Assembly: GCA_031296215.1 (NCBI GenBank)
Contig: JARLGE010000066.1
Coordinates: 1 to 42,747 of the forward strand
Direction: 5' to 3'
Source of the DNA: Occallatibacter sp.
GTDB lineage: Bacteria; Acidobacteriota; Terriglobia; Terriglobales; Acidobacteriaceae
Length of the DNA: 42,747 nt
Part shown: positions 2,917 to 38,300 of the stretch, piece by piece
How positions within the stretch are numbered: the stretch's first letter is position 1
How the letters are laid out: each line of letters starts with the position of its first letter
Notes under the pieces: model-generated
The model's database searches: none
What the model saw: the letters and a program-made list of their open reading frames with translations, nothing else
Told to the model about the DNA's origin: nothing
Made by a program: the position numbers and the translations under genes

Positions 2917-4044
2917 ATGGTCGGCTCCACTGCCCCACGGGTTTCTGCTACCGTACTTCTCGCCAAGTCTGTCCTGCAACGGGTTCTCGACAATCTTCAT
3001 GAGGGTGGCTTCCAACTTATCGGCCCTACGGTGCGCGACGGCGCCGTGATTCTCGACGCTATCCGGAACATCTCCGAACTGCCCATCGGATGGTCGCTTG
3101 AACAAAAGGCAGGAAGCTCGCGTTTGTTGCGAACCCACGCAACAGACTACTTTGGCTGCACCGTTGGCCCGCATTCGTGGAAGCGGTATCTTTTCCCCCC
3201 TCACTTGGATCTGCTGATTGCGCACAGGAACGGCGAAGGCTGGACGTTTGAACCTCCCCTGGATGATTCTCCTCCGCTTGCCTTCATCGGCGTGCGCTCG
3301 TGCGACCTGCATGCGATTGCCATCCAAGACGATGTCTTCGTCAATGGCGCGGTACGGGATCCGCATTATGCGCGTCGCCGCGAGCGGGCTTTCATCCTGG
3401 TGGCGAACTGCAACACCGCGGCAACAACATGCTTCTGCACGTCGATGAAGACAGGACCTCGGGCGCCCTCCGGATTTGACCTTGCATTGACAGAGCTTCC
3501 CGAATCGTTTGTTCTTGAGATCGGCTCGGAGGCTGGCTCGAATGCACTGGCCGGCGTGGACTGGCAGCCGGCCAGCGCCTTCGACCAGGGCCGCGTGGCG
3601 CAGATCATGCAGCGGACTGAGCGGCAGATCCAGCGCCAGGCGACGACAAGCGACCTGCCGCAACTGTTGTACGACAGGATCGACCATCCCTATTGGGAAG
3701 CCATTGCGGCGCGATGCCTCTCCTGTGGAAATTGCACCCTGGTCTGTCCCACCTGCTTCTGCTCAACGGTTGAGGAGCATAGCGATCTGACAGGGGCAAG
3801 CACGAGGCGAACGCGCGTGTGGGACTCCTGTTTCATCCTCGATTTTTCCCACGTCCATTCCGGAAACAGCCGACCCACCATCAAGTCGCGCTACCGCCAG
3901 TGGATGACCCACAAGCTGGCGGCGTGGATCGATCAATTCGGCCGTTCCGGCTGCGTGGGGTGCGGGCGCTGCATCGCATGGTGCCCGGTGGGAATCGACA
4001 TCACCGAAGAGTTGAGCGCCCTTCGTTCACTGGGGGCACGATGA
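2917..4044 (+). CDS. hydB: Group 3b [NiFe]-hydrogenase (sulfhydrogenase) beta subunit, 4Fe-4S protein
   Basis: 375 residues. The subunit carries electrons between the hydrogenase small subunit and the flavin subunit of the cytosolic complex. Two ferredoxin-type cluster sites are visible in the C-terminal third: C267-x2-C270-x2-C273-x3-C277 (with extra C280 and C282) and C346-x2-C349-x2-C352-x3-C356. The N-terminal part contains the conserved VRSCDLHAI stretch typical of the HydB/HyhB and anaerobic sulfite reductase A family. The start is fixed by TTGAGGAGG ending four bases upstream. It is the first gene of a four-gene operon and overlaps the next gene by ATGA. AsrA-like sulfite reductase subunits are the main alternative, but the hydrogenase subunits downstream decide the call. 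Confidence 0.93.
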
Positions 4045-4898
4045 GCCAGACAGCAATGCTCGAGCCGGCGATCATAGCAGATCCCATGCTACCCTCTCCG
4101 GCGGTGGTGCGCGCCATCCGCCCGGAGACTTACGGAATCTCGACCTTCTCGCTGGAATACCTTGACCCCGCCGCACCGGCAGGATTCGCCCCGGGCCAGT
4201 TCAACATGATTCATCTGCCTGGATTAGGCGAGGTTGCCATATCCATCTGCTCCGATCCCAATACGCCAAAAGTGATGGAGCACACAGTCCGTTACGCAGG
4301 CAGCGTCACGCGGGCCATTGGCCGCCTGAAGGTTGACGACACGGTGGGTCTGCGCGGGCCCTACGGAAACCCCTGGCCCATGCAGCTTGCAGAGGGCAAG
4401 GACCTCATGATCGTCTCTGGCGGAATTGGGCTGGCGCCTTTGCGCCCCGTGATACTGGAGGTTATCCATCGCCGCAGCAGCTTCGGCCGGGTGCTCATCC
4501 TTTATGGAGGCCGCACGCCCCAGGACTTGCTCTATACCAGCGAATTCGAAAGATGGCAGGACTCCGGAATTGAGATAAACGTTAGCGTAGATCGCGCCGA
4601 CGAGACGTGGAAGGGCCAGGTCGGCGTGATCCCAATGGCCTTTTACCGCATCCGCCTCGATCACCGCAATACGCTGGTGTTCTCCTGCGGCCCGGAGATC
4701 ATGATGCGCTTCGTCATCTACGAAGCGATGGCGCGGCGCATTCCCAAAGACGCCATTTACGTCTCCATGGAACGCAATATGAAGTGCGCCATCGGACTCT
4801 GCGGGCATTGCCAGGTTGGGCCAGTCTTCATTTGCAAACAGGGCCCGGTGTTCCGGTTTTCCGAGATTGAAGCGTTCTTCGGAAGGGAGGAGTTCTGA
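4041..4898 (+). CDS. hydG: Group 3b [NiFe]-hydrogenase (sulfhydrogenase) gamma subunit, FAD/NAD(P)-binding
   Basis: 285 residues from the ATG at 4041, which overlaps the hydB stop; an upstream in-frame start at 3819 would lie inside hydB and is rejected. The fold is ferredoxin-NADP reductase-like: an FAD-binding beta barrel (about residues 20-110), an NAD(P)-binding domain with [12 protein letters not shown] near residue 130, and [10 protein letters not shown]. The C-terminus has a 2Fe-2S-type site, CAIGLCGHC with a further Cys in VFICKQGP. The role is hydride exchange between NAD(P)H and the iron-sulfur chain, usually with NADPH in group 3b. The stop and the next start share TGATG. Confidence 0.93.
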
Positions 4899-5686
4899 TG
4901 GCGGGAGATGCAAAGCCGCGCTTGGCGGTTTTCAAACTGGCTTCCTGCGACGGCTGCCAGTTGCAGATGCTGAATCTGGAAGACGAACTCCTGGAGATTG
5001 CAGGCGCAGTCGATATCTGCTATTTTCTCGAGGCGCGCTCGCAGGTCCTCGACGGTCCTTACGACGTGGCGCTGGTGGAAGGATCGGTGACCACGGAGCA
5101 CGACGTGGAGCGGGTGCGCGACATCCGGCGAAAATCTAAGATGCTGATCACCATCGGCGCCTGCGCCAGCGCCGGCGGAATCCAGGCGCTGCGCAACATG
5201 CACAATGTGGATGAGTACACCCGCTCCATTTACGCCAATCCCTCTTACATCCATACGCTATCGCAATCGACGCCGGTGGCAGCGCACGTGACGGTGGATT
5301 TTGCCATCAACGGCTGCCCAATCTCAAAAGAGCAACTGCTGGAAGTGCTTACGGCTCTGCTGATTGGGCGCGCCCCGCAACTGCCGACTTACTCGGTGTG
5401 CGTCGAGTGCAAGCGCAAAGGGAATGTCTGTCTGCTGGTGGCGCGGGGCATCGCCTGCATCGGTCCCATCACGCAGGCCGGTTGCGGCGCGTTGTGTCCG
5501 GGTTTCAACCGCGGCTGTTTTGGCTGTTACGGCCCCATGGAAAGTCCCAATCCCGATTCTCTTTGCCAAACCCTCACCGTGCGCGGCATTCCACGCGCCG
5601 AAACGCTGCGCCTGCTGAATGGATTCACCGGCTGGGCGGAGGAATTCCGCTCCGCCGCGGAGAAGCTTGAAAAGGCATCGATATGA
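4898..5686 (+). CDS. hydD: Group 3b [NiFe]-hydrogenase (sulfhydrogenase) delta / small subunit
   Basis: 262 residues. The small subunit holds the iron-sulfur clusters closest to the NiFe site. Visible ligands are SCDGCQ near residue 15, GACASAGG, NGCPISKEQ, and a Cys-rich C-terminal part with CVECKRKGNVC and CGALCPGFNRGCFGCYGP. These match the proximal cluster and additional [4Fe-4S] sites of the group 3 small subunit (oxidored_q6 family). There is no Tat signal, which agrees with a cytosolic enzyme. The start overlaps the hydG stop (TGATG) and the stop overlaps the hydA start (ATGA), indicating translational coupling. Confidence 0.95.
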   Translation: MAGDAKPRLAVFKLASCDGCQLQMLNLEDELLEIAGAVDICYFLEARSQVLDGPYDVALVEGSVTTEHDVERVRDIRRKSKMLITIGACASAGGIQALRNMHNVDEYTRSIYANPSYIHTLSQSTPVAAHVTVDFAINGCPISKEQLLEVLTALLIGRAPQLPTYSVCVECKRKGNVCLLVARGIACIGPITQAGCGALCPGFNRGCFGCYGPMESPNPDSLCQTLTVRGIPRAETLRLLNGFTGWAEEFRSAAEKLEKASI

Positions 5687-6987
5687 CCGCGACCAATGGA
5701 ACGCGCACAATCCGCCTGGAATCGATGACCCGTGTTGAGGGAGAGGGTGGCCTCCGCATTGAGGTCCGCGATGGGCGGCTTCAGGACGTCAGGCTGGACA
5801 TTTACGAGCCGCCGCGCATGTTCGAGGCATTTCTGCGCGGGCGCTCGATACGCGAAGTGCCCGATATCACCGCGCGCATCTGCGGCATCTGTCCAGTTGC
5901 CTACCAGATGAGTTCCGTGCAGGCCATTGAAGCCGCGCTGGAGATCACGCCGGGGCCGGGGATTCAGGCGCTGCGCCGGCTGCTTTACTGCGGGGAATGG
6001 ATGCAGAGCCATGCGCTGCATATCTACCTGCTGCAGGCTCCCGACTTTTTCGGGATGGAGAGCGCGGTGGAGCTGGCGGGGAAACAGCCCGATCTGGTGC
6101 GCCGCGGACTGGAGCTGAAAAAGGTCGGCAATGCGCTGATGGAGACGATCGGCGGCCGGTCCGTGCATCCTGTTTCTGTCTGTGTGGGCGGATTCTGGAA
6201 GGTCCCGCGCCGCAATGAAATGTTGGCACTGCGCGGCCGCCTGGAGTGGGCGCTGAAGGCCTCGCTCGAAACCGTGAAGTTCGTATCTTCGCTGCCGCTG
6301 CCGGAGTTCAAGGCGAACTATGAATGCGTGGCGCTCTCCCATCCCCGGGAATACCCGATGAACGCAGGACACATTGTCTCCTCGGCGGGGCTGGACATAC
6401 CTCTTAAGGAGTTCGAGCAGGTGTTTCTCGAAATGCACGTGGCGCATTCAACGGCGCTGCACTCGGTGCGCGCCGAGCATGGATCGAGTTACCTGGTTGG
6501 GCCGCTGGCACGCATCAACCTGAACCTCAACCATCTGCCCCCGGCCGCGCGTCAGGCCGCGGAGGAGAGCGGAATCGCATGGCCCTGCTCCAATCCTTAT
6601 GCGGGAATCGTGGCCCGGGCTGTTGAACTGGTGATGACCTGCGAAGAGAGCCTGCGGCTCATCGACGCCTACGAGGAACCGGAACCGCCCAGCCTTCCCT
6701 ACACGGTTCGCGCGGCGGAGGGATGCGCTGCAACGGAGGCTCCGCGAGGATTGCTCTATCACCGATATCGCATCAACGATCAGGGCATCGTCCAAACCGC
6801 AAGAATCGTCCCGCCCACGGCGCAAAACTACCGCCGCATGGAAGACGACCTGCGGCTGCTGATTCCTGGAATTCTGGAGCAGACGGATGCTGAGATTGTA
6901 GACGAATGCGAAAGGCTCGTGCGCAATTACGATCCCTGCATTTCCTGCTCTACGCATGCGCTCAGGGCTCGCATTGTCCGGTCCTGA
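5683..6987 (+). CDS. hydA: Group 3b [NiFe]-hydrogenase (sulfhydrogenase) alpha / catalytic large subunit
   Basis: 434 residues. The NiFe-binding cysteines are present in both signatures: R65-I-C67-G-I-C70 near the N-terminus and D417-P-C419-I-S-C422-S-T-H425 near the C-terminus. Nine residues (ALRARIVRS) follow His425. In this family such a tail is removed by a dedicated endopeptidase once nickel is inserted, so the gene product is a precursor. The enzyme reversibly oxidises H2 with NADP(H); some relatives also reduce polysulfide. No hyp maturation gene or protease is in the window, so maturation must be supplied from elsewhere. The operon ends here, with no convincing terminator after the stop. 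Confidence 0.96.
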   Translation: MTATNGTRTIRLESMTRVEGEGGLRIEVRDGRLQDVRLDIYEPPRMFEAFLRGRSIREVPDITARICGICPVAYQMSSVQAIEAALEITPGPGIQALRRLLYCGEWMQSHALHIYLLQAPDFFGMESAVELAGKQPDLVRRGLELKKVGNALMETIGGRSVHPVSVCVGGFWKVPRRNEMLALRGRLEWALKASLETVKFVSSLPLPEFKANYECVALSHPREYPMNAGHIVSSAGLDIPLKEFEQVFLEMHVAHSTALHSVRAEHGSSYLVGPLARINLNLNHLPPAARQAAEESGIAWPCSNPYAGIVARAVELVMTCEESLRLIDAYEEPEPPSLPYTVRAAEGCAATEAPRGLLYHRYRINDQGIVQTARIVPPTAQNYRRMEDDLRLLIPGILEQTDAEIVDECERLVRNYDPCISCSTHALRARIVRS

Positions 6988-7168
6988 GCCCCACCTGAAG
7001 GAGCGATCCTGGAAGCAACGCGGGCGGGGAGTTCGCCGAGGGCTCACACACCGGGACCTTGCATCGTGATACGCCTTTCAAGTTTGCAAGGCTCGAACTT
7101 CGGGAGTCCGGACGGGACGAATGAGCCGTCCAGAAAGCCCGCGCGGCATTCAAGGACACCGGTCGCAT

Positions 7169-7486
7169 TCACGCAGCGCGGTGCAGATCGACGGTGACCT
7201 TCAATTTCGGCTCATTGTCGGCGGAGCCGTGCAAATTCCCCGAATCTCCACTCACTGAGCCCCAGAGCACAAAGTGCAAGGGCCGGTCCATATCCGCGGG
7301 AACGTGGCCCGCATTGGGGCTCACGCGAACGTCCAGGTAGAGCTCCGGTCCATCGGATGTGTATGAACCGGTGTATGTATGGGCGGGATCGCCGCCCAGA
7401 ACCTCTCCATCGCGCAACACTGCCAACCCGTCGCCCTGCGCATCTCCCAGACAAAAGTGCGTACGCCAGAGGCCTTCCATTTTCAT
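7169..7486 (-). CDS. GrlR-like small regulatory-fold protein
   Basis: 105 residues if started at the ATG at 7486, which has AGGAGA nine bases upstream; a longer frame from 7546 lacks a good ribosome binding site. The opening MKMEGLWRTHF, the central DGEVLGGD and a later YTGSY match the pattern of the GrlR family (small eight-stranded barrel proteins named after a type III secretion repressor). In soil bacteria the function of these relatives is unknown. It faces away from the group 4 hydrogenase operon and shares the intergenic region with a CRP/FNR-like palindrome. No secretion genes are nearby, so a secretion role should not be assumed. Confidence 0.65.
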   Translation of the reverse strand: MKMEGLWRTHFCLGDAQGDGLAVLRDGEVLGGDPAHTYTGSYTSDGPELYLDVRVSPNAGHVPADMDRPLHFVLWGSVSGDSGNLHGSADNEPKLKVTVDLHRAA

Positions 7487-7529
7487 CGCTTCAAGTCTCC
7501 TGTTCGCGGTAAAGCTACTTCGGCGACAA

Positions 7530-7558
7530 ATATTACTCCAACACAAGCAAAGGGTCGA
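7530..7558 (-). promoter_or_regulatory. Weak promoter candidate for the GrlR-like gene
   Basis: Read on the minus strand: TCGACC (7558-7553), a 17-base spacer and TAATAT (7535-7530), 44 bases before the start codon. Both hexamers match the sigma-70 consensus only partly. Confidence 0.3.
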
Positions 7559-7637
7559 CTAATCTTCGGAAATGGGCAATCCGCGCGGAAAAACCCTTGA
7601 CACTGCCATCGTTTTCGCGAGCGGCTCCAACTCCCGT

Positions 7638-7653
7638 AGTGACGCCCGTCACA
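7638..7653. promoter_or_regulatory. CRP/FNR-like palindrome AGTGA-N6-TCACA
   Basis: The bases AGTGA CGCCCG TCACA differ at one position from the classical CRP site TGTGA-N6-TCACA. The core GTGACGCCCGTCAC is a perfect inverted repeat. It lies 152 bases upstream of the GrlR-like start and 249 bases upstream of the group 4 hydrogenase operon, so it could act on either. A second site with the same GTGA-N6-TCAC layout lies at 25495-25508. Binding by a Crp/Fnr protein, for example the one at 31189, is inference. Confidence 0.45.
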
Positions 7654-7901
7654 GGGAATACCCAAAGTGACGTGCTAAAAAAAGGTCGGGTAAATGGTTT
7701 ATTGCCGCGGCGCAAAGCGGCAACGGGCGGGAATTCTCCATGTGGCGCCCGCTGCAATCGCCTTCCGGTAAACAGTCGTAGCCGGGCGCCGTCCGCTCAG
7801 AACGCGAATAGCGCTCACAAGTTCCGCCAAGTGGTTGCAACCGATGGCTCGGCAAAACTGCCCTGGATTTTGGCGCTATCCCATCATACTGGGAGGTATT
7901 G

Positions 7902-10900
7902 ATGCCGACCATTACCGATCCAGCACTCCTTCTGATTGCGCCATGTTCGCTTTTGTTCGGCGCTCTGCTGCAGATTCTTGTAGCGCGGCTCTGTTCTGCC
8001 CGAACGAAAGGAATTCTGGCCGTTCTCGCCTGCCTGCCTGCGGTCGCCGCCGTAGCCGGCATGGTGCGCCTGGTGCAGGCGGGAAGGTCGGTCGAGCTCA
8101 ATCTGCTGCAATGGGATGGACCGCTCGCTCTTGTCTTCCACGTAGACGCGCTCAGCGTCCTGTTTGCCTTTATGGGGGCAAGCATTGGCGCGTTGGTGCT
8201 CTTGTATTCGGTCGCGTATATGGCTCACGACCGGTCCGCGACCCGCTTCTATTGCACGATGCAGCTGTTCATCGGCGGATTCATCGCGCTTGTCTATAGC
8301 GCCAACCTGTTTCTGCTCTACCTGTGCTGGGAATTGATCGGACTGTGCTCCTTCAGCCTGGTCGGCTTTTGGTACACCAACCGCGAGGCCGTTGCGGGCG
8401 CGCGCAAGGTCCTGTTGATGACCCACATCGCCGGATACGGCCTGCTGGCGGCCATCCTGATCATCTTCCACCGCACTGGAAGCGCCTTGTGGACCGATCC
8501 CGCCGTGGCGCGCAGCTTCACCGGTGGTGTCTTTGTGTTGATGCTGGCCGCGCTGATGGCCAAGTCTGTGCAGGTGCCTCTGCACACCTGGATTCCAGAG
8601 GCAATGGCGGCGCCAACCCCGGTAAGTTCCCTGCTTCATGCTGCATGTTATGTCACCGCCGGCGTGTACCTTGCCGCGCGCATGCACAGCTTTGGCACGT
8701 GGCCGGCCGCCTGGGGCGCAACTCTCGTGTGGGTGGGCGTCATCACCATGACAGTTGGCGTGATGTACGCCATGGTTCAGACCGATTTGAAGCGCATGCT
8801 TGCCTTCTCCACGGTGAGTCAGATCGGATACATGATGATGGGCCTGGGAATCGGTACGCCGCTGGCCATCGTCGCCGGCCTGCTCCATTGCCTCAATCAC
8901 GGATTCTTCAAAGGAGGCCTGTTCCTGAACGCCGGCGCGGTGCAGCACGCCGCGGGTACGCGCGACATGAACCAACTCGGCGGCCTCGCCGCACGCATGC
9001 CGCGCACCACGCTGTGGTGGCTGATCGGGGTGGGCAACATGGCCGGTATCCCCCTGATGAGCGGCTTCGTCAGCAAGTGGATGCTGTACGCCGCGGCTTT
9101 GCAAGCAGGATGGGCCGTTCCCGCCATGGTGGCCTGGGTGGTTAGCCTGGGCACGGTCTTCCTTTGCGCAAAGGCGACCAGTGCGGTGTTCCTGGGGCCG
9201 CTGACGGAAAAGACCATGGACGCCCATGAGGCTCCGGCCACCATGCAGTGGGGCATGGGACTGATGGCCGCGGGAAGCATTGTCCTGGGCATCGCGCCGC
9301 AGTTGGCCGTGAACTACCTTCTCAATCCGATTCTGGGCGCACTTTCGCTTGGCGCGGGCTTGCAGGTAACGTGGTTTGGACTGTTCGCCGGCGCCGGAAG
9401 CTTCTCGACCACCGGCGGTCTGGTGCTGGCTCTGGTTTCGCTGATTCTGGGCGGCATAATCTACGCCATTGCCTACGTGGCGCGCCCGGCCACTGCCACA
9501 GCCCAAGTCTCAGGAGGTCCGGCGCTGGCCACCGCGGGCGGCGGAATCTTTACCGGCGGCGAGCCTTTGTCCGACCAGGGAAGGCTTACGGCCGGCGACT
9601 TCTCCGATATATTCCTGCAGAACTGGCATGAGTTCTTTCGCTGGACCAATGTGGATCGTGTCTACCTGGGCATCTGGCGCGGTTTGCAGGCGGCTTCGCG
9701 CGTGCTGGGCGTCGCGGTCTGCTGGATGGAGCGGCGGGCCACGGTTCTCGTCGTCCTGTTGGCGGCGGTGGTCTTTGTATTTGTTCGCTGGATCGCAGAT
9801 AGTACTCCGGGTTCCTATGAAGGCGGCATAGCTCCCATGCCTCCTCTCATGATTGCCGCCTGCGCAGTGGCCGCAGTGGCACTGGTTCTTGCTGCGCTGG
9901 CCAGCTCAGTTAGCCGCAAGCGCGCGCCGTTGATGCTGTTGATTGGCGCCTCCACAGTTGCCGGTCTGCTTTCTACCGCGCCTCGGCTTCGCCTTGGACT
10001 GCTGGAACTCGGCGCGCTTCTGACCGTTGTGCTGGTCTGGCAGACGGCGCGAACGCAAGCAGCCAAACTCACCTATCTGGCTGTGGTTCTCATCTCCTCC
10101 GGGACGATGGTGGCGAGCGAGTTGTTCAACAACCCGGCGCAACAACATTGGCCGCGAGCCCTGATGCTGACCAGCATCTGTGTCAAGCTGGCTGCGGTGC
10201 CAATGTTCTTTTGGCTGCTCAGTCTGGCCGATGAACTGCCCTCTCTGGTGCTCGGACTCATCATCGCAGTTGTCGATATGGCGGCCTTCGGCGAATTCTT
10301 CACCGGCGTGATGAATATCAACAGCGCGCTGACTCCTCAACCGTTGTGGCTCTACGCAGCGGTCTTCACCTCGTTGCTCGCCGCTCTTCTGATGCTCACG
10401 CAGCGCAGTCTCAAGCGGTTGCTGGTTCTCTCCACTGTCGAGGATGTTGGCTTCCTGTTGCTCGGGCTGGCCTCCGTCAGCATTCTTGGAATGACTGGCG
10501 TAATCATTGCCGCCTCAACCCACGCATTGGCCAAGGCTCTCTTATTCATCTGCCTCAGCGGTCCCGAGGCAGCCGGCGCGCTCGATGGTGAACACACTGG
10601 ATTGGCCAGCCGCTACCCCGTCAGCGCCTTCGGCTTCCTGTTCGGAATGCTCGCCATGCTGGGCGTGCCACCGACGCTCGGATTCATCGGGCGCTGGCGG
10701 CTCTATGAGACCGCATTGCAAATCAGCCCAATTCTGCTGACGGTCTTTGTTCTATCGTCCATCCTCGCGCTCATCGCATATGTACTGGCGTTGACCCGCG
10801 TATGGTGGGGTCCGGCGCAGGGCTCCGATCCGCCGCTGGCCACTTCGCCAGAAGGTGCCGCGCTTCCGATGAAGGAGCCGCTGGTTCTGCAAGGCGTGAT

Positions 10901-10979
10901 CGTGGTGCTTGTAGCCTTGTTGCTGGTTGGCGGTCTTTGGCCCAGCCTGATCGGAATGCTCGTTGGGGGTAGGCCATGA
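7902..10979 (+). CDS. Fused double antiporter-like membrane subunit of group 4 hydrogenase (CooM-like; NuoL + NuoN/HyfF)
   Basis: 1025 residues from the ATG at 7902, preferred over TTG at 7899 because GGGAGG ends five bases upstream. Two complex I antiporter-like modules are fused. Module 1 (about 1-500) is NuoL-like with the key charged residues in place: E144 (CWELIGLCSF), K221 (AKSVQVPLHTW), K337 (HGFFKGGLF) and K392 (GFVSKWMLY). Module 2 (about 640-1025) is NuoN/HyfF-like with E702, K762 (KLAAVPMFFWL), K878 (HALAKALLF) and R931 (GFIGRWRLY). It has Phe where FHxWL normally has His, and Arg at the last position instead of Lys. A soluble linker of about 100 residues lies between. It would move H+ or Na+ across the membrane, driven by the hydrogenase. 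CooM of CO-linked hydrogenases is the closest known design. Confidence 0.9.
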   Translation: MPTITDPALLLIAPCSLLFGALLQILVARLCSARTKGILAVLACLPAVAAVAGMVRLVQAGRSVELNLLQWDGPLALVFHVDALSVLFAFMGASIGALVLLYSVAYMAHDRSATRFYCTMQLFIGGFIALVYSANLFLLYLCWELIGLCSFSLVGFWYTNREAVAGARKVLLMTHIAGYGLLAAILIIFHRTGSALWTDPAVARSFTGGVFVLMLAALMAKSVQVPLHTWIPEAMAAPTPVSSLLHAACYVTAGVYLAARMHSFGTWPAAWGATLVWVGVITMTVGVMYAMVQTDLKRMLAFSTVSQIGYMMMGLGIGTPLAIVAGLLHCLNHGFFKGGLFLNAGAVQHAAGTRDMNQLGGLAARMPRTTLWWLIGVGNMAGIPLMSGFVSKWMLYAAALQAGWAVPAMVAWVVSLGTVFLCAKATSAVFLGPLTEKTMDAHEAPATMQWGMGLMAAGSIVLGIAPQLAVNYLLNPILGALSLGAGLQVTWFGLFAGAGSFSTTGGLVLALVSLILGGIIYAIAYVARPATATAQVSGGPALATAGGGIFTGGEPLSDQGRLTAGDFSDIFLQNWHEFFRWTNVDRVYLGIWRGLQAASRVLGVAVCWMERRATVLVVLLAAVVFVFVRWIADSTPGSYEGGIAPMPPLMIAACAVAAVALVLAALASSVSRKRAPLMLLIGASTVAGLLSTAPRLRLGLLELGALLTVVLVWQTARTQAAKLTYLAVVLISSGTMVASELFNNPAQQHWPRALMLTSICVKLAAVPMFFWLLSLADELPSLVLGLIIAVVDMAAFGEFFTGVMNINSALTPQPLWLYAAVFTSLLAALLMLTQRSLKRLLVLSTVEDVGFLLLGLASVSILGMTGVIIAASTHALAKALLFICLSGPEAAGALDGEHTGLASRYPVSAFGFLFGMLAMLGVPPTLGFIGRWRLYETALQISPILLTVFVLSSILALIAYVLALTRVWWGPAQGSDPPLATSPEGAALPMKEPLVLQGVIVVLVALLLVGGLWPSLIGMLVGGRP

Positions 10980-11524
10980 ACCTCTGGAATCGACTGATGT
11001 GCTACAGCCGCCGCCGCAGCCCCTGGCTCTTTCACATGAACGGGGGCAGTTGCAACGGCTGCGATATCGAGTTGATCGCCAGCCTCACCCCTCGTTACGA
11101 CGCCGAGCAGTTGGGAGTGCGCCTCGAGGGAAGTCCCCGCCACGCCGATATTCTCTGCATCACGGGACCCATAACCCACAACGCGGTGAATCCCATTAAA
11201 ACCGTCTACGATCAGGTTTGCGGACCCAAGGCTGTGGTCGCAATCGGCTCCTGTCCGGCTACGACCAATGTTTTCATTGACAGCCGCACCCTGGCAGGGC
11301 CGCTCAATCTCCATATCCCCGTCGATGTCTTTGTTCCCGGTTGCCCGCCGCGCCCCGACGCCATTATCCAGGGCGTGGCCAAGGCGGCCGAGATACTGGC
11401 CGAGAGAGCGGCGAAAAAGTTGCCCGTCGAGCCTGTCGTCATGCCTTTGGTCGGGCCGGGATGCGGTGGCGCTTGCGGATGCACGGCCGCGGACAAATCC
11501 GGAGCCAAGGAGGCCCAGCCATGA
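10976..11524 (+). CDS. Group 4 [NiFe]-hydrogenase small subunit (NuoB/CooL/HyfI-like)
   Basis: 182 residues, starting by ATGA overlap with the preceding gene. It binds the proximal [4Fe-4S] cluster that passes electrons to the NiFe site, through C-N-G-C (in NGGSCNGCDIEL), GSCPAT and PGCPPRPDAI, the standard oxidored_q6 ligands. There is no signal peptide; the subunit sits on the cytoplasmic side of the complex. After the core, the C-terminus carries a short Cys-rich patch, GPGCGGACGC, followed by a charged tail. That patch is not needed for the known cluster and its purpose is unclear. The gene lies between the fused antiporter gene and the NuoH-like gene. Confidence 0.93.
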   Translation: MNLWNRLMCYSRRRSPWLFHMNGGSCNGCDIELIASLTPRYDAEQLGVRLEGSPRHADILCITGPITHNAVNPIKTVYDQVCGPKAVVAIGSCPATTNVFIDSRTLAGPLNLHIPVDVFVPGCPPRPDAIIQGVAKAAEILAERAAKKLPVEPVVMPLVGPGCGGACGCTAADKSGAKEAQP

Positions 11525-12435
11525 ATCTGACCACCGCACTGGCGCGCCTGCTCATCTTTCCCGGACTCCTTTTCGCCGTGCCTGCGGCGTGGTTCTTCCT
11601 TTGGGTAGAACGCAAAGCCGTTGCATTGATGCAGGGGCGCATTGGCCCTCCCTTCATGCAGCCGTTCTACGATTTCATCAAGCTGCTGGGCAAGAGCACG
11701 CCCCCTCGCAGCGGAGTAAGCGGCCTGCTGATGAAGATGTGGCCGCTGATTGCGGTGTCGGCGGCGGCTGGAGCGGTTGGGCTGCTGCCCGTGCTGCCCT
11801 CCTCCGGCGGCTTCGAGGGCGACCTGATCCTGCTCCTGGCCCTGCTCGAACTCCCCTCCATTTGCATCATCGCCGCCGGCTTCTCTTCGCGCTCCATCTT
11901 CGGCGAGATCGGGTCGGCGCGCGAGGCCGCCTTGAGCGTCTCCTATAACGTGGTCTTCCTTCTGGCCATTGTTTCCATTGCGGCGTCGCAGCATACCTTC
12001 CGGCTCGAAGCCCTGGCGGGACTGCCGACCTCGCCGCTGCATTGGCTTGGCGTGGTTGCGATTCTGGTGTGCCTGCCCGCCAAGCTGCATATCAATCCTT
12101 TCTCCCTACCCAACGCAGAACAGGAGATCTACTCCGGACCCATGACCGAATACGCCGGCCCCGAACTGGCCATGTGGGAGCTGTCCCATGGTCTTGAGTG
12201 GGTCGCGGCTACCGGCCTGGTGGCCACGCTGGCCGCTCCCCATCTCACGCTCTGGTGGCTCGCCGCCCTCGTCTTCGTTGGACTTTCCTTCGCGGTGGTT
12301 TTGCTCTTGTCGGCGGTTGCCGCCGCAACCGCGCGCTTGGCCATCGATACGACGGTGCGGTTTTACTGGCAATGTACCCTGATCTTCGCGGTCCTCGCCA
12401 TCTCCTCCGCGCTCTTCATGAGGATTCGATCATGA
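11521..12435 (+). CDS. Group 4 hydrogenase membrane anchor subunit (NuoH/CooK/HyfC-like)
   Basis: 304 residues from the ATG at 11521, which overlaps the stop of the small subunit; an upstream in-frame start at 11341 lies inside that gene. About eight hydrophobic segments are visible. NuoH signatures are WVERKAVALMQGRIGPPFMQ near residue 29, EIGSAREAALSVSYN, and INPFSLPNAEQEIYSGPMTE with acidic residues. The protein docks the hydrogenase module to the antiporter module and forms part of the coupling channel. It is shorter than true complex I NuoH at the N-terminus, as is usual for hydrogenase relatives. Its stop overlaps the next start (ATGA). Confidence 0.93.
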   Translation: MNLTTALARLLIFPGLLFAVPAAWFFLWVERKAVALMQGRIGPPFMQPFYDFIKLLGKSTPPRSGVSGLLMKMWPLIAVSAAAGAVGLLPVLPSSGGFEGDLILLLALLELPSICIIAAGFSSRSIFGEIGSAREAALSVSYNVVFLLAIVSIAASQHTFRLEALAGLPTSPLHWLGVVAILVCLPAKLHINPFSLPNAEQEIYSGPMTEYAGPELAMWELSHGLEWVAATGLVATLAAPHLTLWWLAALVFVGLSFAVVLLLSAVAAATARLAIDTTVRFYWQCTLIFAVLAISSALFMRIRS

Positions 12436-12857
12436 ACATTCTCACCATGCTGTGGAGGAATCTGTGGGGCGGCAACCGGACGTTGCGCTTTCCCGCGCGC
12501 CCCAAGGTGAGTGAGGGCTACCGGGGCCTGGTCCGGTTCGATCCTGAGCTGTGCACCGGCTGCGCGATCTGCAGATTCCGCTGTACCGCGCGCGCCATCG
12601 AGTTTCGCGCCGGCAAAGGCGAATTTGTGTGGAGCTACGATCCCGGGCATTGTACTTTTTGCGGGCGCTGCGTGGAAGGCTGCAAAACCCATGCGCTCAG
12701 CCAGGACCCTGTCTGTCCGCCCGTGTATCTGAACATCGGCGAGTTGAAGAACTCCTACACCGTGGCGCGCAAGACGCCTGCTCCCAAGTCCGGCGCTGCG
12801 ACCCCGCCAGCGACTGAAAGCAAGGCCGCCGATACTGCCCCTGGAGGCACACAATGA
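12432..12857 (+). CDS. Group 4 hydrogenase polyferredoxin subunit (NuoI/CooX/HyfH-like)
   Basis: 141 residues from the ATG at 12432, coupled to the preceding stop. Two [4Fe-4S] sites are visible: CTGCAICRFRC around residue 38 and CTFCGRCVEGC around residue 74. In both, the fourth ligand is followed by Thr or Lys rather than the usual Pro. The protein passes electrons from a soluble donor, in relatives a ferredoxin, to the small subunit. The C-terminal about 35 residues are a low-complexity Ala/Pro/Lys/Thr tail without clear structure. Confidence 0.92.
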   Translation: MNILTMLWRNLWGGNRTLRFPARPKVSEGYRGLVRFDPELCTGCAICRFRCTARAIEFRAGKGEFVWSYDPGHCTFCGRCVEGCKTHALSQDPVCPPVYLNIGELKNSYTVARKTPAPKSGAATPPATESKAADTAPGGTQ

Positions 12858-13288
12858 ACGTACTTGAGGCTGTACCGAAAGAGAACATTCTTGAGCGCAT
12901 CCCGGAAAAGCTGGGGGTTGCGGATCGCTGGATTGAGAAAGGCGGCGTGCACTGGCTGTCCCCAGGCGCATTGAAAGTGCGCGAACTTGCCTTGGAAATG
13001 AACGCCTGCCATGCCCGCTTTGTCACCATTACTGCTTACCAGTTGCCGGGCGACCAAGGCTTCCGGCTGGAGTATCACTGGGACCTCGATGGCCAGTTGC
13101 TCGGCTTCCCGTTTCTGCTTGCCGGCAATTCCATCGAGAGCATCTACGACCTGTCCGAGGCCGTGGACTGGATTGAGCGCGAGATTCACGAAGGCTTCGC
13201 CATCGACTTCCTGGGACGCGAGTACGAACCGCTGCTTCTGCGCCAGGGAGACAAGGCGGGAGTGAACCTGCGCGAGGAGCTCCTATGA
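12854..13288 (+). CDS. Group 4 hydrogenase NuoC-like subunit (CooU / HyfG N-terminal part)
   Basis: 144 residues. It matches the 30-kDa NuoC family in its C-terminal half, where EREIHEGFAIDFLGREYEPL corresponds to the complex I signature around ERE.wD.fGi.F.gHP. In formate hydrogenlyase-type enzymes this module is fused to the large subunit; here it is a separate gene, as in CooU-CooH. It supports assembly of the small and large subunits and has no cofactor of its own. The start overlaps the previous stop and its own stop overlaps the large-subunit start. Confidence 0.9.
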   Translation: MNVLEAVPKENILERIPEKLGVADRWIEKGGVHWLSPGALKVRELALEMNACHARFVTITAYQLPGDQGFRLEYHWDLDGQLLGFPFLLAGNSIESIYDLSEAVDWIEREIHEGFAIDFLGREYEPLLLRQGDKAGVNLREELL

Positions 13289-14367
13289 GCTACAAAATTC
13301 CCATGGGTCCGTACCACCCCGCGTTGGAAGAGCCTTACAAGCTGGATATGATCTGCGAAGGCGAAAGGGTTTCCGACGCCAAACTGCATATCGGATTCAA
13401 CTTCCGCGGTATCGAGCATCTGGCGGAAACCCGCAACTACATTCAGGTCATCGCGCTGATGGAGCGCGTGTGCGGAATCTGCTCGAACATCCACACACTC
13501 ACGCTTTGCCAGGCCATGGAGCAGTTGACCGGCCAGGAGCCGCCGCCGCGCGCGCTGTATATTCGCGTCGTCATGGCGGAACTGGAGCGTCTGCACTCCC
13601 ATGTGCTCTGGGCGGGCATCGCAGCCAAGCTCATGGGCTTCAAGACCATGTTCATGACCTGCTTCGAGATCCGCGAAAAGGTCATGGATGTGCTTCAGGC
13701 AATTTCCGGCAACCGCGTCAACTACTCGATGAACAGGATTGGCGGGGTCAATCGCGATATCGACGATCCGCTTGCGGTACTGGCCATGGTTGAGCAACTG
13801 GAGCGCGAGATGGTCCGCACCGTCATCCCCATCTTTACCACCAGCACGACGGCGAGGATGCGCTGTGCCGGCATCGGAGTCCTCACCCATGAGAAGGCTA
13901 TCTCTTGCGGTGTGGTAGGGCCCGCGGCAAGGGCTTCCGGGGTGCCCCAGGATCTTCGTCGCGCCGCGCCCTACGCGGCCTACTCCGAACTCGAATTCGA
14001 CGTGCCGGTCGAGAAGGATGGCGACGTGCGCGCACGCCTGCTGGTGCGGGCGCTGGAGATTATGGAGAGCTGCCGCATCCTTCGCCAGGCACTCGCCAAG
14101 ATGCCGTCCGGCGAGTTCCACACCGGAGAGGGGAAAATCGTTTTTTCCACGGGAACGGCCACGAGCCGCGTCGAGGCGCCGCGCGGAGAAGTGATGTACA
14201 GTGTTTCGTGGAAAGAGAATTCCAGAAATCCGAGCCGAGTGCACGTCCGCACGCCGACGTTCGCAAACATGCCGGCGATCCGCTGGATGGTGATTGGGGC
14301 CCGGCTTGCCGATACACCCTTGATCCAGGCCTCCATCGACCCCTGCTACTCGTGCACCGACAGGTAG
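13285..14367 (+). CDS. Group 4 [NiFe]-hydrogenase catalytic large subunit (CooH/HyfG/EchE-like), no C-terminal extension
   Basis: 360 residues. All four NiFe cysteines are present, R61-V-C63-G-I-C66 and D352-P-C354-Y-S-C357, so this is a hydrogenase and not the Cys-lacking NuoD of complex I or an Ehr protein. Translation ends with CTDR and a TAG. In precursors such as E. coli HycE, the maturation protease cuts directly after that Arg, so this subunit is encoded in already mature form; CooH and some Ech proteins are reported to share this. With CooM-like and separate CooU-like partners, group 4c or a nearby branch is most likely, but the subgroup needs a tree. No CO dehydrogenase gene (cooS/cooF) is in the window. 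Confidence 0.93.
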   Translation: MSYKIPMGPYHPALEEPYKLDMICEGERVSDAKLHIGFNFRGIEHLAETRNYIQVIALMERVCGICSNIHTLTLCQAMEQLTGQEPPPRALYIRVVMAELERLHSHVLWAGIAAKLMGFKTMFMTCFEIREKVMDVLQAISGNRVNYSMNRIGGVNRDIDDPLAVLAMVEQLEREMVRTVIPIFTTSTTARMRCAGIGVLTHEKAISCGVVGPAARASGVPQDLRRAAPYAAYSELEFDVPVEKDGDVRARLLVRALEIMESCRILRQALAKMPSGEFHTGEGKIVFSTGTATSRVEAPRGEVMYSVSWKENSRNPSRVHVRTPTFANMPAIRWMVIGARLADTPLIQASIDPCYSCTDR

Positions 14368-14435: not shown

Positions 14436-14564
14436 GGGAGGCGATGGAGAAGATCGGTGCTGAAAAGCGCCCCGTCGCGATGCTATTTGTTGCGAAGCTG
14501 CCACTGAAAGACGCTCCTGTAAACTGAATAGTTCCCCATTTTGGGCAAGCGGACAGGAGGCCCC

Positions 14565-15782
14565 ATGGCATCGGTAATTCTTCCAGCAGGACAAATGGAT
14601 TCATCGGAGTCGCGGCCGGGGCGGTTTGGCGTTTATGGCGGCAGGTATGTGCCGGAGACGCTGATGGCGGCGCTGGTGGAACTGGAGCACGAGTACGACC
14701 TCGCCAAAAACGACGCGGCGTTTCAGGCGGAGCTGGCCGGCCTCTTGAAAGACTACGCGGGGCGGCCGACGCCGCTTTACTTTGCCAAGCGGCTCACGGA
14801 GCAACTTGGCGGGGCAAGGATCTATCTGAAGCGCGAGGACCTGCTGCACACCGGGGCGCACAAGATCAACAATGCGCTGGGGCAGGGCCTCTTGGCCAAG
14901 CGGATGGGCAAAAAGCGCATCATTGCCGAAACGGGCGCGGGCCAGCACGGCGTGGCTACGGCAACGGTGTGCGCGTTGCTGGGCTTGGAGTGCGTCGTCT
15001 ACATGGGCGATGTGGACATGGCGCGGCAGGAGCTGAACGTGCTGCGCATGCGGCTGCTGGGGGCGGAGGTGCGCGGGGTGTCTGCGGGGTCGAAGACGCT
15101 GAAGGACGCGATCAGCGAGGCGATGCGGGACTGGGTTACCAATGTGCGGACCACGTATTATCTGCTGGGCTCGGCGCTTGGGGCGCATCCTTATCCGACC
15201 ATGGTGCGCGACTTTCATCGCTGCATCGGCCGCGAGATCAAAGAACAGATCCTGGAGAAAGAAGGCCAGTTGCCGACGGCGGTGATCGCCTGCGTGGGCG
15301 GCGGGTCGAACGCGATTGGCGCCTTCTACGAGTTCATTCCGGAGAGACAAGTCCGGTTGATCGGCGTGGAGGCCGGCGGGCGCGGCACGGCGCTGGGCCA
15401 GCACGCGGCGCGCTTCAGCGGCGGGTCGCCGGGGGTTTTGCAAGGCACGTATTCTTACGTTTTGCAGGATGAAAACGGGCAGATTGCGCTGACGCATTCG
15501 GTTTCGGCGGGCCTCGACTATGCCTCGATCGGGCCGGAGCACGCGGCGCTGCACGATTCGGGACGCGCGGAGTACGTCTCGCAGGACGATGCGGCGGCGC
15601 TCGACGCGGTGGTGCGGCTGGCGCGTACGGAGGGAATTCTGCCGGCGCTGGAAAGCGCGCACGCGGTGGCCGAGGCGTTGAAGATGGCTCCTACGATGGC
15701 GGCCCATGACATACTGGTGGTGAATCTTTCTGGACGCGGCGACAAGGATATGGGCATCCTGGCGCGGGAGTTGAAATTATAG
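14565..15782 (+). CDS. trpB: Tryptophan synthase beta subunit
   Basis: 405 residues from the ATG at 14565, chosen because AGGAGG (14555-14560) lies four bases upstream; a TTG at 14541 is the only earlier start. It condenses indole with L-serine to form L-tryptophan using pyridoxal phosphate. The Schiff-base lysine is K100 in [10 protein letters not shown], the phosphate-binding loop is [10 protein letters not shown], and [12 protein letters not shown] and YVGQ-type substrate residues are conserved. The length is typical of TrpB1. It opens the aromatic amino acid cluster and is separated from trpA by a small membrane-protein gene, which is unusual because trpB and trpA are usually adjacent. 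Confidence 0.97.
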
Positions 15783-34116: not shown

Positions 34117-34593
34117 ATGCAAATGACTACGCCTTCTTCACCGGAAAAGAATCTCGCGGCGCTCGGGCTTGCCTTGCCGCTCGCGCCCGCTCCGGGCGGG
34201 AATTACGTTTCATCCAAGCAGGTGGGCTCCGTCGTCTACCTCTCCGGAGTGATTTCGTTGGGGACAGAGGGCATCCTTACCGGCGTCGCCGGCCTGGACC
34301 GGTCCATTGAAGAAGGCTACGCGGCGGCCAGGGCGTGCGCTCTGACGCAACTGGCGGTGCTGAAGCGCGACCTGGGATCGCTGGACCGCGTGGCAGAGGT
34401 GTTGACGGTGAACGGCTACGTGAATGCAGCGCCGGGATTTCCGGACTCGCCTGCCATCATCGACGGCGCTTCCGATCTGCTGGTGAAAGTGTTTGGCGAG
34501 GCGGGGCGGCATGTGCGCGCGGCGATCGGCCTGAACGCGCTGCCGCGCAACGCCCTGGTGGAGCTGCAAATGACCGTGCGAGTGAAGGAATGA
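34117..34593 (+). CDS. RidA/YjgF-family protein (Arg-lacking subgroup)
   Basis: 158 residues; the ATG at 34123 is a close alternative and no clear ribosome binding site is seen for either. The family pattern is visible: PAPGGNYVSSKQVGSVVYLS, GYAAARACALTQLAVLK, PAIIDGASDLLVKVFGEAG and HVRAAIGLNALPRNALVEL. In imine-hydrolysing RidA, an Arg binds the substrate carboxylate just before the LP motif; here that position is Asn (GLNALP), as in the YjgF-like subgroup of unknown activity. The gene begins a plus-strand run with formamidase, amidase and XdhC, so a role in amide or nucleobase turnover is possible. The stop overlaps the next start. Confidence 0.88.
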   Translation: MQMTTPSSPEKNLAALGLALPLAPAPGGNYVSSKQVGSVVYLSGVISLGTEGILTGVAGLDRSIEEGYAAARACALTQLAVLKRDLGSLDRVAEVLTVNGYVNAAPGFPDSPAIIDGASDLLVKVFGEAGRHVRAAIGLNALPRNALVELQMTVRVKE

Positions 34594-35540
34594 TGACCGG
34601 GCACGCGCTATCAGCGAAACCGACGCACTCCGCGTGGGACCGCTCGCTTCCGCCGCGGTTGCGCGTCGAGCCGGGCGATGAAGTTGCGTTTGAATGCGTG
34701 GACTCGAGCGGCGGCCAGGTGCATCCCGGGATGACGACAGCGGCGTTCCTGACGATTGATCGCAGCCGCATTCATGCGCTTACCGGACCTGTGTGGGTTG
34801 AAGGAGCGGAGCCGGGCGATGTGCTGCAGGTGGATGTGCTGTTCACGCGGCACGCCGGCTGGGGATGGTCCAGCGTTATCGAGGGCCTGGGATTCCTGAA
34901 AGACCGTTTCCGCGAGCCCTATCTCTTTCATTGGCAACTGGACGGAGAGTCCACGAGCTCGCTGGCCCCGGCGGTTGTACCGGTGCGGCCGTTTCTGGGC
35001 GTGATGGGCGTGGCGCGCGCCGAGGACGGCGCATTCCGCACGCGCCCGCCGGGCCCGTTCGGCGGCAATCTGGATGTGCGCGAACTGTGTGCCGGCTCGC
35101 GGCTTTACCTGCCGGTGTTCAACCATGGCGCGCTGTTCAGTTGCGGCGATGGCCATGCGGCGCAGGGCGACGGCGAGGTGTGTGTCAACGGCATCGAGTG
35201 CCCGCTGGACGTGACGTTGCGCTTCCAACTGCACAAGCGGCAGGTGCTCTCCGGGCCGATCGTCGAGGCCAGCGAAGTTGCCGCGCCTGATTCGACGGCC
35301 GACGCATGGGTGGTGATCGAGACGGGAACGGATCTGGCCGCTGCCGCGCGGGCTGCCACCAGCCGCATGATCGACCTGCTGGTCAGCCGCTGGGGCTTCT
35401 CGGAGATCCATGCGTACATTCTTTGCAGCGTGGCGCTCAAGCTGCGTCTGAGCCAGGTGGTCAACGATCCCGTCTCGACAGTGAGCGCCGCGCTGAGCAA
35501 GCAGATTCTGCCGGAGCGGGAGCTGTTTCCGGCACCATGA
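34590..35540 (+). CDS. Acetamidase/formamidase family amidohydrolase
   Basis: 316 residues. The first ATG (34590) overlaps the RidA stop, and a second in-frame ATG follows at 34593. Family signatures are PGDEVAFECVDSSGGQVHPG, GPVWVEGAEPGDVLQVDVL, PPGPFGGNLDVRELCAGS and a Cys/Gly-rich loop FSCGDGHAAQGDGE that contributes to the zinc or active site in FmdA/AmdA enzymes. It splits formamide or short amides to acid and ammonia. Formamide-like products arise in purine and histidine breakdown, which fits its neighbours. Confidence 0.88.
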   Translation: MMTGHALSAKPTHSAWDRSLPPRLRVEPGDEVAFECVDSSGGQVHPGMTTAAFLTIDRSRIHALTGPVWVEGAEPGDVLQVDVLFTRHAGWGWSSVIEGLGFLKDRFREPYLFHWQLDGESTSSLAPAVVPVRPFLGVMGVARAEDGAFRTRPPGPFGGNLDVRELCAGSRLYLPVFNHGALFSCGDGHAAQGDGEVCVNGIECPLDVTLRFQLHKRQVLSGPIVEASEVAAPDSTADAWVVIETGTDLAAAARAATSRMIDLLVSRWGFSEIHAYILCSVALKLRLSQVVNDPVSTVSAALSKQILPERELFPAP

Positions 35541-35594
35541 CGGTCGAGGATTTCACCGCGGACGGCTTCCTTTCCGAGCCCCTACAATCCATGT

Positions 35595-36890
35595 ATGAAC
35601 TCTACGCGGTGGGCCATGGGCGGCCTGAGGCGCGCGTTGGCGGATGGAACATTGCGGCCCTCCGCCTTGGCGGAGCAGGCCCTGGCCCGGTCGAATGCGA
35701 ACGCCGGACGCAACACCTACTTGTGGCAGAGCGCGGAGTGGACTCTGGCCGAGGCTGCGCGCGTTGAGGCCATGCCGCACGGCGAGGGCGGACCCTTTGG
35801 CGACGGCCGGAGCGCACTGTGGGGATTGCCGGTTTCGGTGAAGGATTGCTTTGACCTGGCTGGCGCGCCCACCAGTTTCGGGGTGCGTTTCTATCGCGAA
35901 CTGAACGGCGACGCGACGCGGGATTCCTGGCTGGTGGAGCGGCTGCGGATGGACGGCGCGGTGATCGTCGGCAAGACCCATCTGCATCCACTGGCCTACG
36001 GGATTACCGGCGAGAATCCCGAGTTCGGCGACTGTGTGCAGCCCGGCAACCCTGGCGCACTGACCGGCGGCTCGTCCTCGGGCGCGGCGGCGAGCGTGCT
36101 GGAAGGGTCGGCCGTAGCTGCGATCGGCACAGACACCGGCGGCTCGGTGCGCGCGCCTGCCGCGCTGTGCGGGCTGGCCGGCTATCGCGCCTCGCTGGGC
36201 CGCGGCGACTGGCGGGGAGGCGCGCATCTGGCGCAGTCGTTCGACACCATGGGGTGGCTGTTCCGCGATCTTGAGGACGCGCCGCTGCTGGCGAGTGTCT
36301 TTGCTCCAGAGGCAACCGCACGAGACCGAGCATTCAATCGGTTTGCGGTTGTGGACGATGGCTTTTTACTCGATTGCGAGGCGGAGATTGCCGATGGCCT
36401 GAAGGCCGCCGTTGGCGCACTGGAGGCGCTCGGCCTGAAGGGCGCGCGGATCGACGTGGACTGGTGGGCAGAGTCCCTTGCGATCTATGCGCCCATCCAG
36501 GCGTGGGAGGCGGCGCGCATTCACGCCGGACACCACGACCGGTTCGAGACTTCGATTCGCGAACGGCTGGAATGGGGCGCGGGCATTGGCAGTTCTGAAA
36601 TCGCCGCGCTGCGACAGCGTCACGCGGACTTTCGTGCGCGGATGGATGAGCTGCTTGCCAGGCACGAACTGCTGCTGCTTCCGGCCTCGCCGGTGGTTCG
36701 GCTTGAGGCCGGAGCCGACCACAGGCAGACGCGCGCCCGGCTGCTGCGTTACACCACGCCGTTCAGCCTGGCAGGAGTGCCCGTCGTCGTGATTCCCTGC
36801 GCCGCCGGCGGCATGCAGTTGGCCGCCGCGCGCGGTTGCGACGAGGCGCTGCTGCAACTGGCCGCGCGGCTGGCGGACCTGGGCCACTGA
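35595..36890 (+). CDS. Amidase-signature family hydrolase
   Basis: 431 residues. The Ser-cisSer-Lys triad of the amidase signature family is visible: the Lys in GLPVSVKDCFD, the Ser-rich loop TGGSSSGAAASV and the nucleophile region GTDTGGSVRAPAALCGLAGY. The start at 35595 has no strong ribosome binding site and lies 54 bases after the formamidase stop. Members act on many amides; related genes near purine genes are sometimes called allophanate hydrolase or AtzF-like, but the C-terminal domain of those is absent here. The substrate cannot be fixed from sequence. Confidence 0.87.
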   Translation: MNSTRWAMGGLRRALADGTLRPSALAEQALARSNANAGRNTYLWQSAEWTLAEAARVEAMPHGEGGPFGDGRSALWGLPVSVKDCFDLAGAPTSFGVRFYRELNGDATRDSWLVERLRMDGAVIVGKTHLHPLAYGITGENPEFGDCVQPGNPGALTGGSSSGAAASVLEGSAVAAIGTDTGGSVRAPAALCGLAGYRASLGRGDWRGGAHLAQSFDTMGWLFRDLEDAPLLASVFAPEATARDRAFNRFAVVDDGFLLDCEAEIADGLKAAVGALEALGLKGARIDVDWWAESLAIYAPIQAWEAARIHAGHHDRFETSIRERLEWGAGIGSSEIAALRQRHADFRARMDELLARHELLLLPASPVVRLEAGADHRQTRARLLRYTTPFSLAGVPVVVIPCAAGGMQLAAARGCDEALLQLAARLADLGH

Positions 36891-36922
36891 CCGCATAATT
36901 TCGTGTGTTGAGACTCGTGCTA

Positions 36923-36955
36923 TCCCAGGTCTCAAAATCGAGACCTGGGGCACCC
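36923..36955 (+). repeat. Dispersed hairpin repeat, GGGGCACCC type
   Basis: CCCAGGTCTC (36924-36933), loop AAAATC and GAGACCTGGG (36940-36949) form a perfect ten-pair stem, then GGCACCC completes GGGGCACCC. The frame (TCCCA, variable stem, GGGGCACCC) is the one at 19395-19435 with a different stem centre. It lies in the 142-base gap between the amidase and xdhC. Confidence 0.6.
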
Positions 36956-37032
36956 GGCTCCCGGCTCCGGCGCGGCTGGCTGAGCTGACCAGCCGGGACC
37001 GGCGCTGAGGCAAGGCGTCGCAAATTCCCGCG

Positions 37033-38235: not shown

Positions 38236-38286
38236 AGAGGCGATATGTCTCTTGCTTCCCGAAGGAATTGAACTAGAATATGAAAT

Positions 38287-38300
38287 CTGCCCTTGGGCAG
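38287..38300 (+). other. Short hairpin between xdhC and preT
   Basis: CTGCCC (38287-38292), TT and GGGCAG (38295-38300) form a perfect six-pair palindrome 52 bases after the xdhC stop, followed by AGTTGTT. It may end the xdhC message or mark the leader of the preT operon; the T-run is short. Confidence 0.35.

What the first reader, a model, noticed from the sequence alone, without database searches (positions are those of the whole stretch)
2917..14367. Tandem NADP-linked group 3b and membrane ion-pumping group 4 [NiFe]-hydrogenases in one locus
Seen: two complete operons in the same direction, four and six genes, with only a small divergent gene between them, and all four NiFe cysteines intact in each large subunit. 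Known: group 3b couples H2 to NADP(H); group 4 couples ferredoxin to H2 and ion transport. Inference: together they could interconvert reduced ferredoxin, NADPH and an ion gradient through H2, as a ferredoxin-NADP exchange device. I do not know of a described system with exactly this pairing in an acidobacterium.
Basis: partly seen in the sequence, partly recalled or inferred. Interest (0 to 1): 0.75.

Follow-up and report, generated by a model that had tools for sequence, protein, structure and literature searches.

The report
Two neighbouring hydrogenase operons, not conserved
An acidobacterium carries two complete hydrogen enzymes side by side, one predicted to work with NADP(H) and one predicted to pump ions, but close relatives do not share the arrangement, so it looks like a chance neighbourhood of two known enzyme types rather than a dedicated machine.

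Summary
Window 2917-6987 is a complete four-gene group 3b [NiFe]-hydrogenase operon; 7899-14367 is a complete six-gene group 4 operon with a fused double antiporter subunit. Both are on the + strand, each large subunit has its four NiFe cysteines, and 911 bp with a small divergent gene lie between.

Comparison does not support a conserved exchange unit. Of 80 genomes held for the genus (it includes Occallatibacter savannae), 39 have this group 4 enzyme, 3 have a 3b, and only this one shows them adjacent (many loci are cut by contig ends). None of 80 named group 4 loci has a 3b in the held flank, and none of 37 other 3b loci has this group 4. The sister genome G300 has both on separate contigs.

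The group 4 operon does lie beside other NAD(P)-linked modules: a Hox/HydABC-like hydrogenase in 7 of 39 genomes, a NuoE/NuoF-GltA-like module in 3. A loose ferredoxin-NAD(P)H link through H2 stays possible, but that idea is already published for Pyrococcus (PMC4620386, passages). Verdict: known enzyme types, one-off adjacency.

The parts
2917..4044 (+). 3b beta subunit (HydB/AsrA-like, iron-sulfur)
   Evidence: NCBIfam sulfhyd_HydB 152 bits, below its cut-off; Fer4_22; 15 Cys invariant in 35 rows
4041..4898 (+). 3b gamma subunit (FAD/NAD(P)-binding, DHODB-type Fe-S)
   Evidence: PF00175, PF10418; closest solved chain SHI gamma 9nez_C, 172 bits
4898..5686 (+). 3b delta, small hydrogenase subunit
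   Evidence: sulfhyd_HydD 197 bits, below its cut-off; PF01058
5683..6987 (+). 3b alpha, NiFe large subunit; C67, C70, C419, C422
   Evidence: PF00374; PDB match; Cys positions
7169..7486 (-). small divergent gene orfX, function unknown
   Evidence: no family hit; homologues in L122, L067, L075
7899..10979 (+). group 4 fused double antiporter-like subunit, 1026 aa (start TTG 7899 or ATG 7902)
   Evidence: two PF00361 stretches; single frame in 8 of 14 loci checked, two or split frames in the rest; E145, K222 invariant in 29 rows; E703, K763, K879 in nine acidobacterial rows
10976..11524 (+). group 4 NuoB-like small subunit
   Evidence: PF01058; C26, C29, C123 invariant in 29 rows, C93 present in the window but not invariant
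11521..12435 (+). group 4 NuoH-like membrane subunit
   Evidence: PF00146
12432..12857 (+). group 4 two-[4Fe-4S] ferredoxin-like subunit
   Evidence: Fer4 families; 8 Cys invariant in 28 rows
12854..13288 (+). group 4 NuoC-like subunit
   Evidence: PF00329
13285..14367 (+). group 4 NiFe large subunit, ends DPCYSCTDR; C63, C66, C354, C357
   Evidence: PF00346 and PF00374; MbhL closest solved relative; Cys
14541..15782 (+). trpB, flank whose trpA/DAHP-synthase neighbourhood is syntenic in the genus
   Evidence: trpB-trpA-d17381 in 8 of 8 fetched relatives, none with hydrogenase genes upstream in the held stretch

Best explanation
Two ordinary [NiFe]-hydrogenases sit side by side because a rearrangement placed them next to each other, upstream of trpB. 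The group 4 enzyme most likely oxidises reduced ferredoxin (a PFOR is encoded on contig C264), evolves H2 and pumps ions through two fused antiporter-like modules. The 3b enzyme reversibly exchanges electrons between H2 and NADP(H). They are probably separate transcription units and meet only through the common H2 pool, which a Hox-like hydrogenase and a group 1 uptake hydrogenase in the same genome also share. Shown: gene content, cysteines, adjacency, lack of conservation in the collections searched. Inferred: electron donors, direction, ion pumping, rearrangement.
For: Adjacency only in G000 among 39 group 4-bearing genomes of the genus; 3b in 3 of 80 genus genomes and 0 of 42 that are at least 90% complete and at most 5% contaminated. 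0 of 80 named group 4 loci with a 3b; 0 of 37 other 3b loci with this group 4. Window group 4 is sister to G300 (100/97) inside a six-row clade in which four have a Hox operon beside group 4 instead, while the window 3b groups with G300, G208 and G250 (100/100): different neighbours, same enzymes. The stretch 1-14 kb has GC skew near zero, 14-38 kb about +0.05 to +0.18. PFOR 1799 bits over cut-off, group 1 b-type cytochrome over cut-off; HypD present; no RnfC above cut-off.
Against: Only 16 of 40 group 4 loci had 4 kb or more held on both sides, and 27 of 40 had 1 kb or more upstream, so further cases could be missed. 11 of 39 genomes have some NAD(P)-linked module beside group 4, which hints that such neighbourhoods may be more than chance. 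No expression data were available.
Confidence: 0.7

Rival explanations
1. Dedicated ferredoxin-NADP exchange device: group 4 makes H2 from reduced ferredoxin while storing an ion gradient, and the adjacent 3b captures it as NADPH, or the reverse.
For: Both enzymes look complete; the scheme was suggested for Pyrococcus MBH and SHI (PMC4620386 and PMC2865534, passages).
Against: Adjacency not found elsewhere; separate units; the genome has two further [NiFe]-hydrogenases that could use the same H2; SHI deletion without phenotype.
Confidence: 0.12
2. Interchangeable-partner reading: in this lineage the group 4 operon tends to settle beside one or another NAD(P)-linked module (Hox/HydABC-like hydrogenase, NuoE/NuoF-GltA fusion, here 3b).
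For: Hox in 7 of 39 genomes, six co-directional downstream and one convergent; NuoE/NuoF-GltA in 3; 3b in 1. The tree needs at least three label changes for each of the first two.
Against: Label shuffles do as well (222 of 500 for Hox, 500 of 500 for NuoEF), so the tree shows no clustering; no background rate of such neighbours was measured; 28 of 39 genomes show none in the held flank, many cut by contig ends.
Confidence: 0.2
3. Assembly chimera joining the two operons in a metagenome bin.
For: The 3bA-orfX junction is seen in this one contig only; assembly in 350 contigs, 3.36% contamination.
Against: orfX-group 4 is shared with G300 and G111, trpB-trpA with 8 relatives; GC3 of both operons is alike, 0.70-0.79.
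Confidence: 0.05

Closest known systems
Pyrococcus furiosus MBH (group 4d) with SHI (group 3b)
   Same: Same two enzyme classes in one cell and the same proposed H2 recycling from ferredoxin to NADPH (PMC4620386, PMC2865534, passages). MbhL and SHI chains are among the closest solved relatives.
   Different: MBH has fourteen subunits (PMC2865534) with Mrp-type partners; here six genes and one fused antiporter chain. I did not test whether the Pyrococcus loci are linked.
CooMKLXUH CO-linked hydrogenase (group 4c; gene set and order recalled)
   Same: Same six kinds of subunit and a short large subunit ending just after the last cysteines.
   Different: No PF03063 (CODH/HCP) match in the own genome, 88% complete; no CooH reference sequence was compared.
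Group 4 operons of Anaerolineae and of Azospirillum plasmids
   Same: Same subunit order, large subunit 53-63% identical.
   Different: In Longilinea, Levilinea and L167 the antiporter is two frames; the two Azospirillum loci read have two antiporter CDS and an added ferredoxin and aldehyde:ferredoxin oxidoreductase.
Electron-bifurcating NiFe HydABCSL (7t2r), for the Hox-like neighbour in relatives
   Same: Closest solved relative of HoxH, HoxF-like and HoxU-like chains (480, 668, 218 bits).
   Different: The HoxF-like chain ends about 60 residues short of HydB, where the C-terminal clusters lie; HydA-like chain is 237 of 692 aa. Bifurcation is not shown.

Membership tests
[NiFe] group 3b | four subunits, HydB-HydG-HydD-HydA | tested here: met
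   NCBIfam scores are below the archaeal equivalog cut-offs
[NiFe] group 3b | L1 and L2 CxxC in the large subunit | tested here: met
[NiFe] group 3b | NADP(H) as partner | not testable with these tools
   NAD(P)-binding domain present; specificity not read from sequence
[NiFe] group 4 | NuoD-like large subunit with four NiFe cysteines, closer to hydrogenases than to complex I | tested here: met
[NiFe] group 4 | NuoB-, NuoH- and antiporter-like subunits | tested here: met
[NiFe] group 4 | ferredoxin coupling and ion translocation | not testable with these tools
   consistent charged residues only; their role is recalled
group 4a formate hydrogenlyase | large subunit fused to NuoC-like part | tested here: not met
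   separate genes 12854-13288 and 13285-14367
group 4c CO-linked | CO dehydrogenase present | tested here: not met
   no PF03063 match in own genome; assembly 88% complete, so a gap is possible
group 4d Mrp-linked | Mrp antiporter small subunits in the operon | tested here: not met
   six genes only, none of that kind
HydDB subgroup of the group 4 enzyme | placement among 4a-4i references | tested here: inconclusive
   tree has only HycE as a named subgroup reference, on a long branch
dedicated 3b-group 4 exchange unit | conserved adjacency | tested here: not met

The most novel reading that the evidence does not exclude
In the Occallatibacter lineage the six-gene group 4 operon serves as a platform beside which different NAD(P)-linked electron modules are installed (Hox/HydABC-like hydrogenase, NuoE/NuoF-GltA fusion, or 3b as here), so that H2 or direct contact lets reduced ferredoxin, NAD(P)H and an ion gradient be exchanged with a swappable partner.
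Probability: 0.18. Interest if true: 0.55.

Novelty: new member of a known kind. Interest (0 to 1): 0.25.

Why it matters
As a one-off adjacency it matters little beyond annotating hydrogen metabolism in this genus. If the swappable-partner reading were true, it would show how soil and peat acidobacteria tie fermentative ferredoxin disposal to NAD(P)H supply and ion pumping, and it could be tested in cultured members such as Occallatibacter savannae, which has the group 4 operon and a Hox-like hydrogenase (G209).

Tried and rejected
Group 4c assignment: rejected for lack of a PF03063 match in the own genome. Formate hydrogenlyase: rejected for the window, because the large subunit is unfused and no formate dehydrogenase was seen among the window proteins scanned (I scanned 26 window proteins, not every ORF). 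Insertion as a block between conserved neighbours: trpB side is syntenic in 8 of 8 relatives, but the left gene (17-2170) was not found in any of the loci scanned with it and the contig starts there, so the left edge of the rearrangement stays unknown. Upstream ORFs at trpB were looked at by eye in two relatives only. Promoter and terminator scans gave no more sites than shuffles and were not used. Structure prediction was not run. Metatranscriptomes were not available.

Full report
What is there. The four genes at 2917-6987 are a group 3b hydrogenase and the six at 7899-14367 a group 4 hydrogenase. Genes within each operon overlap by 1 or 4 bases, while 911 bp and a divergent small ORF separate the operons. 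Large-subunit cysteines are complete. The 3b large subunit is closest among solved structures to cytosolic hydrogenase and sulfhydrogenase alpha chains, and the flavin subunit to SHI gamma. The group 4 large subunit is closest to MbhL, then HycE. The 1026-residue membrane subunit has two antiporter domains. It is one frame in the acidobacterial loci looked at and in one Anaerolineales MAG, and two frames in three Anaerolineae loci; the two Azospirillum plasmid loci annotate two genes.

Who it is. The own genome has four [NiFe] large subunits in all: the two in the window, one on C79 with a b-type cytochrome (group 1-like) and one on C264 with Hox-like genes, a maturation protease and a PFOR. 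HypD is present. PF03063 gave no match. RnfC gave two matches below its cut-off, one of them the HoxF-like gene. The assembly is 88% complete, so absences are weak.

Is the pair conserved? In 298 genomes of the order, the 3b large subunit is in 18, own genome included. A group 4 large subunit at 65% identity or more was listed in 20 genomes, own included, and none but G000 had both on one contig. In all 80 genomes held for the genus, group 4 is in 39 (40 places) and 3b in 3: G000, G300 and G331. I fetched all 40 places. Only G000 has a 3b next to group 4. Flanks are a limit: 27 of 40 had at least 1 kb upstream and 16 of 40 at least 4 kb on both sides. G300 has its 3b on C365 with 10.7 kb before it and at least 5 kb after it, and its group 4 on C22 beside another module. 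In G331 the 3b is in two short contigs, one starting with the end of a HoxH and the other running into a PFOR, and group 4 is on a third contig cut just upstream, so remote linkage cannot be excluded there. In the phylum, 25 of 396 genomes have a 3b at E <= 1e-100, own included. I read the flanks of 14 of 17 order loci, 20 of 24 phylum loci and three genus pieces, 37 loci in all. No full-length relative of this group 4 large subunit was there. Partial matches of 22-36% identity occurred in 12 loci and fall on the 3b large subunit itself or, in L138 and L155, on another hydrogenase-like match. From the other side, the scan of named genomes kept the best 80 of 588 confirmed loci. None has a 3b gene; two matches at 29% fall on HoxH. 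Forty-nine of these 80 hold 20 kb or more, and ten of them are Acidobacteria records, at least several being genomes already counted in the G set.

What does lie beside group 4. A Hox-like operon follows it co-directionally in six genomes (G299, G286, G191, G298, G334, G096) and convergently in G313. A divergent NuoE / NuoF-GltA fusion / HoxU-like module precedes it in G300, G310 and G111. That is 11 of 39 with an NAD(P)-linked neighbour, counting G000. The Hox-like large subunit itself is in 70 of 80 genus genomes, so mere co-occurrence says little. Shuffled labels on the tree do as well, so I do not claim clustering.

History. In a tree of 61 group 4 large subunits (36 of the 40 genus places; G301, G303, G312 and one G314 piece were left out) the window is sister to G300 (100/97). 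Both lie in a six-row clade (99/89) whose other four have Hox beside group 4. The tool warned of long branches among the outgroup rows, which does not touch this clade. In a tree of 37 3b large subunits the window groups with G300 and G208 (100/99) and then G250 (100/100), apart from the rest. The simplest reading is that the group 4 operon moved from the hypF-Hox setting of its relatives and came to lie by the 3b, upstream of trpB. trpB-trpA and a DAHP synthase gene stay together in 8 of 8 fetched relatives without hydrogenase genes there. GC skew changes at about 14 kb, which fits a rearrangement but does not prove it.

Mechanism. From the families involved (HydDB table, PMC5037454, passages), 3b couples NADPH and H2 reversibly, and ferredoxin-coupled group 4 enzymes evolve H2 and move ions. 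With PFOR in the genome, ferredoxin to H2 by group 4 and H2 to NAD(P)H by 3b or Hox is feasible, as is disposal through group 1. Nothing found ties group 4 to the 3b in particular. The Pyrococcus literature holds the same proposal and a null phenotype for the SHI deletion (PMC4620386, passages).

Prior work. Peatland acidobacterial MAGs with groups 1, 3 and 4, with group 1 and 3 genes upregulated in anoxic incubations, are in PMC6018796 (passages). Group 3b-3d and 4a-g counts in Acidobacteriota are in PMC11245096 (passages). Listings showed no paper on this exact pair; these cover one open-licence library only.

Noticed in passing
L091, L092, L093 (other genera of the family): A different group 4 operon (large subunit about 44% identical) is preceded by HydB- and HydG-like genes without HydD or HydA; in L092 a formate dehydrogenase-alpha-like gene stands before them. 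It may be a formate hydrogenlyase with an NAD(P)-linked side module.
   Followed up: partly
window 7169-7486; L122 5039-5386; L067 7928-8281; L075 12268-12633: The small gene orfX occurs divergently beside a group 4 operon (G300, G111) or a 3b operon (G208); it could be a hydrogenase-associated protein of unknown function.
   Followed up: partly
L090 9531-14341 (own contig C264): Hox-like operon closest among solved structures to the electron-bifurcating HydABCSL, but the HoxF-like chain lacks about 60 C-terminal residues.
   Followed up: partly
L122 506-5132: NuoE, NuoF-GltA fusion of 1059 aa and a NuoG-N-like ferredoxin, without hydrogenase subunits in between, divergent from the group 4 operon.
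   Followed up: partly
L077 7103-7693: A cNMP-binding protein lies between HydB and HydG in this 3b operon; other 3b loci show a similar gap, the window-type 3b does not. Only L077 was checked.
   Followed up: partly
L269, L270 (Azospirillum plasmids): Plasmid-borne relative of this group 4 operon with an aldehyde:ferredoxin oxidoreductase and a ferredoxin upstream.
   Followed up: no
window 34335-42588: Genes resembling formamidase, amidase, XdhC, a GltA/PreT-like oxidoreductase and dihydropyrimidinase, perhaps a pyrimidine or hydantoin degradation cluster.
   Followed up: no
L135 10506-11550: In G301 the group 4 large subunit matches in two pieces (residues 1-44 and 58-360), a possible frameshift or assembly error.
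   Followed up: no
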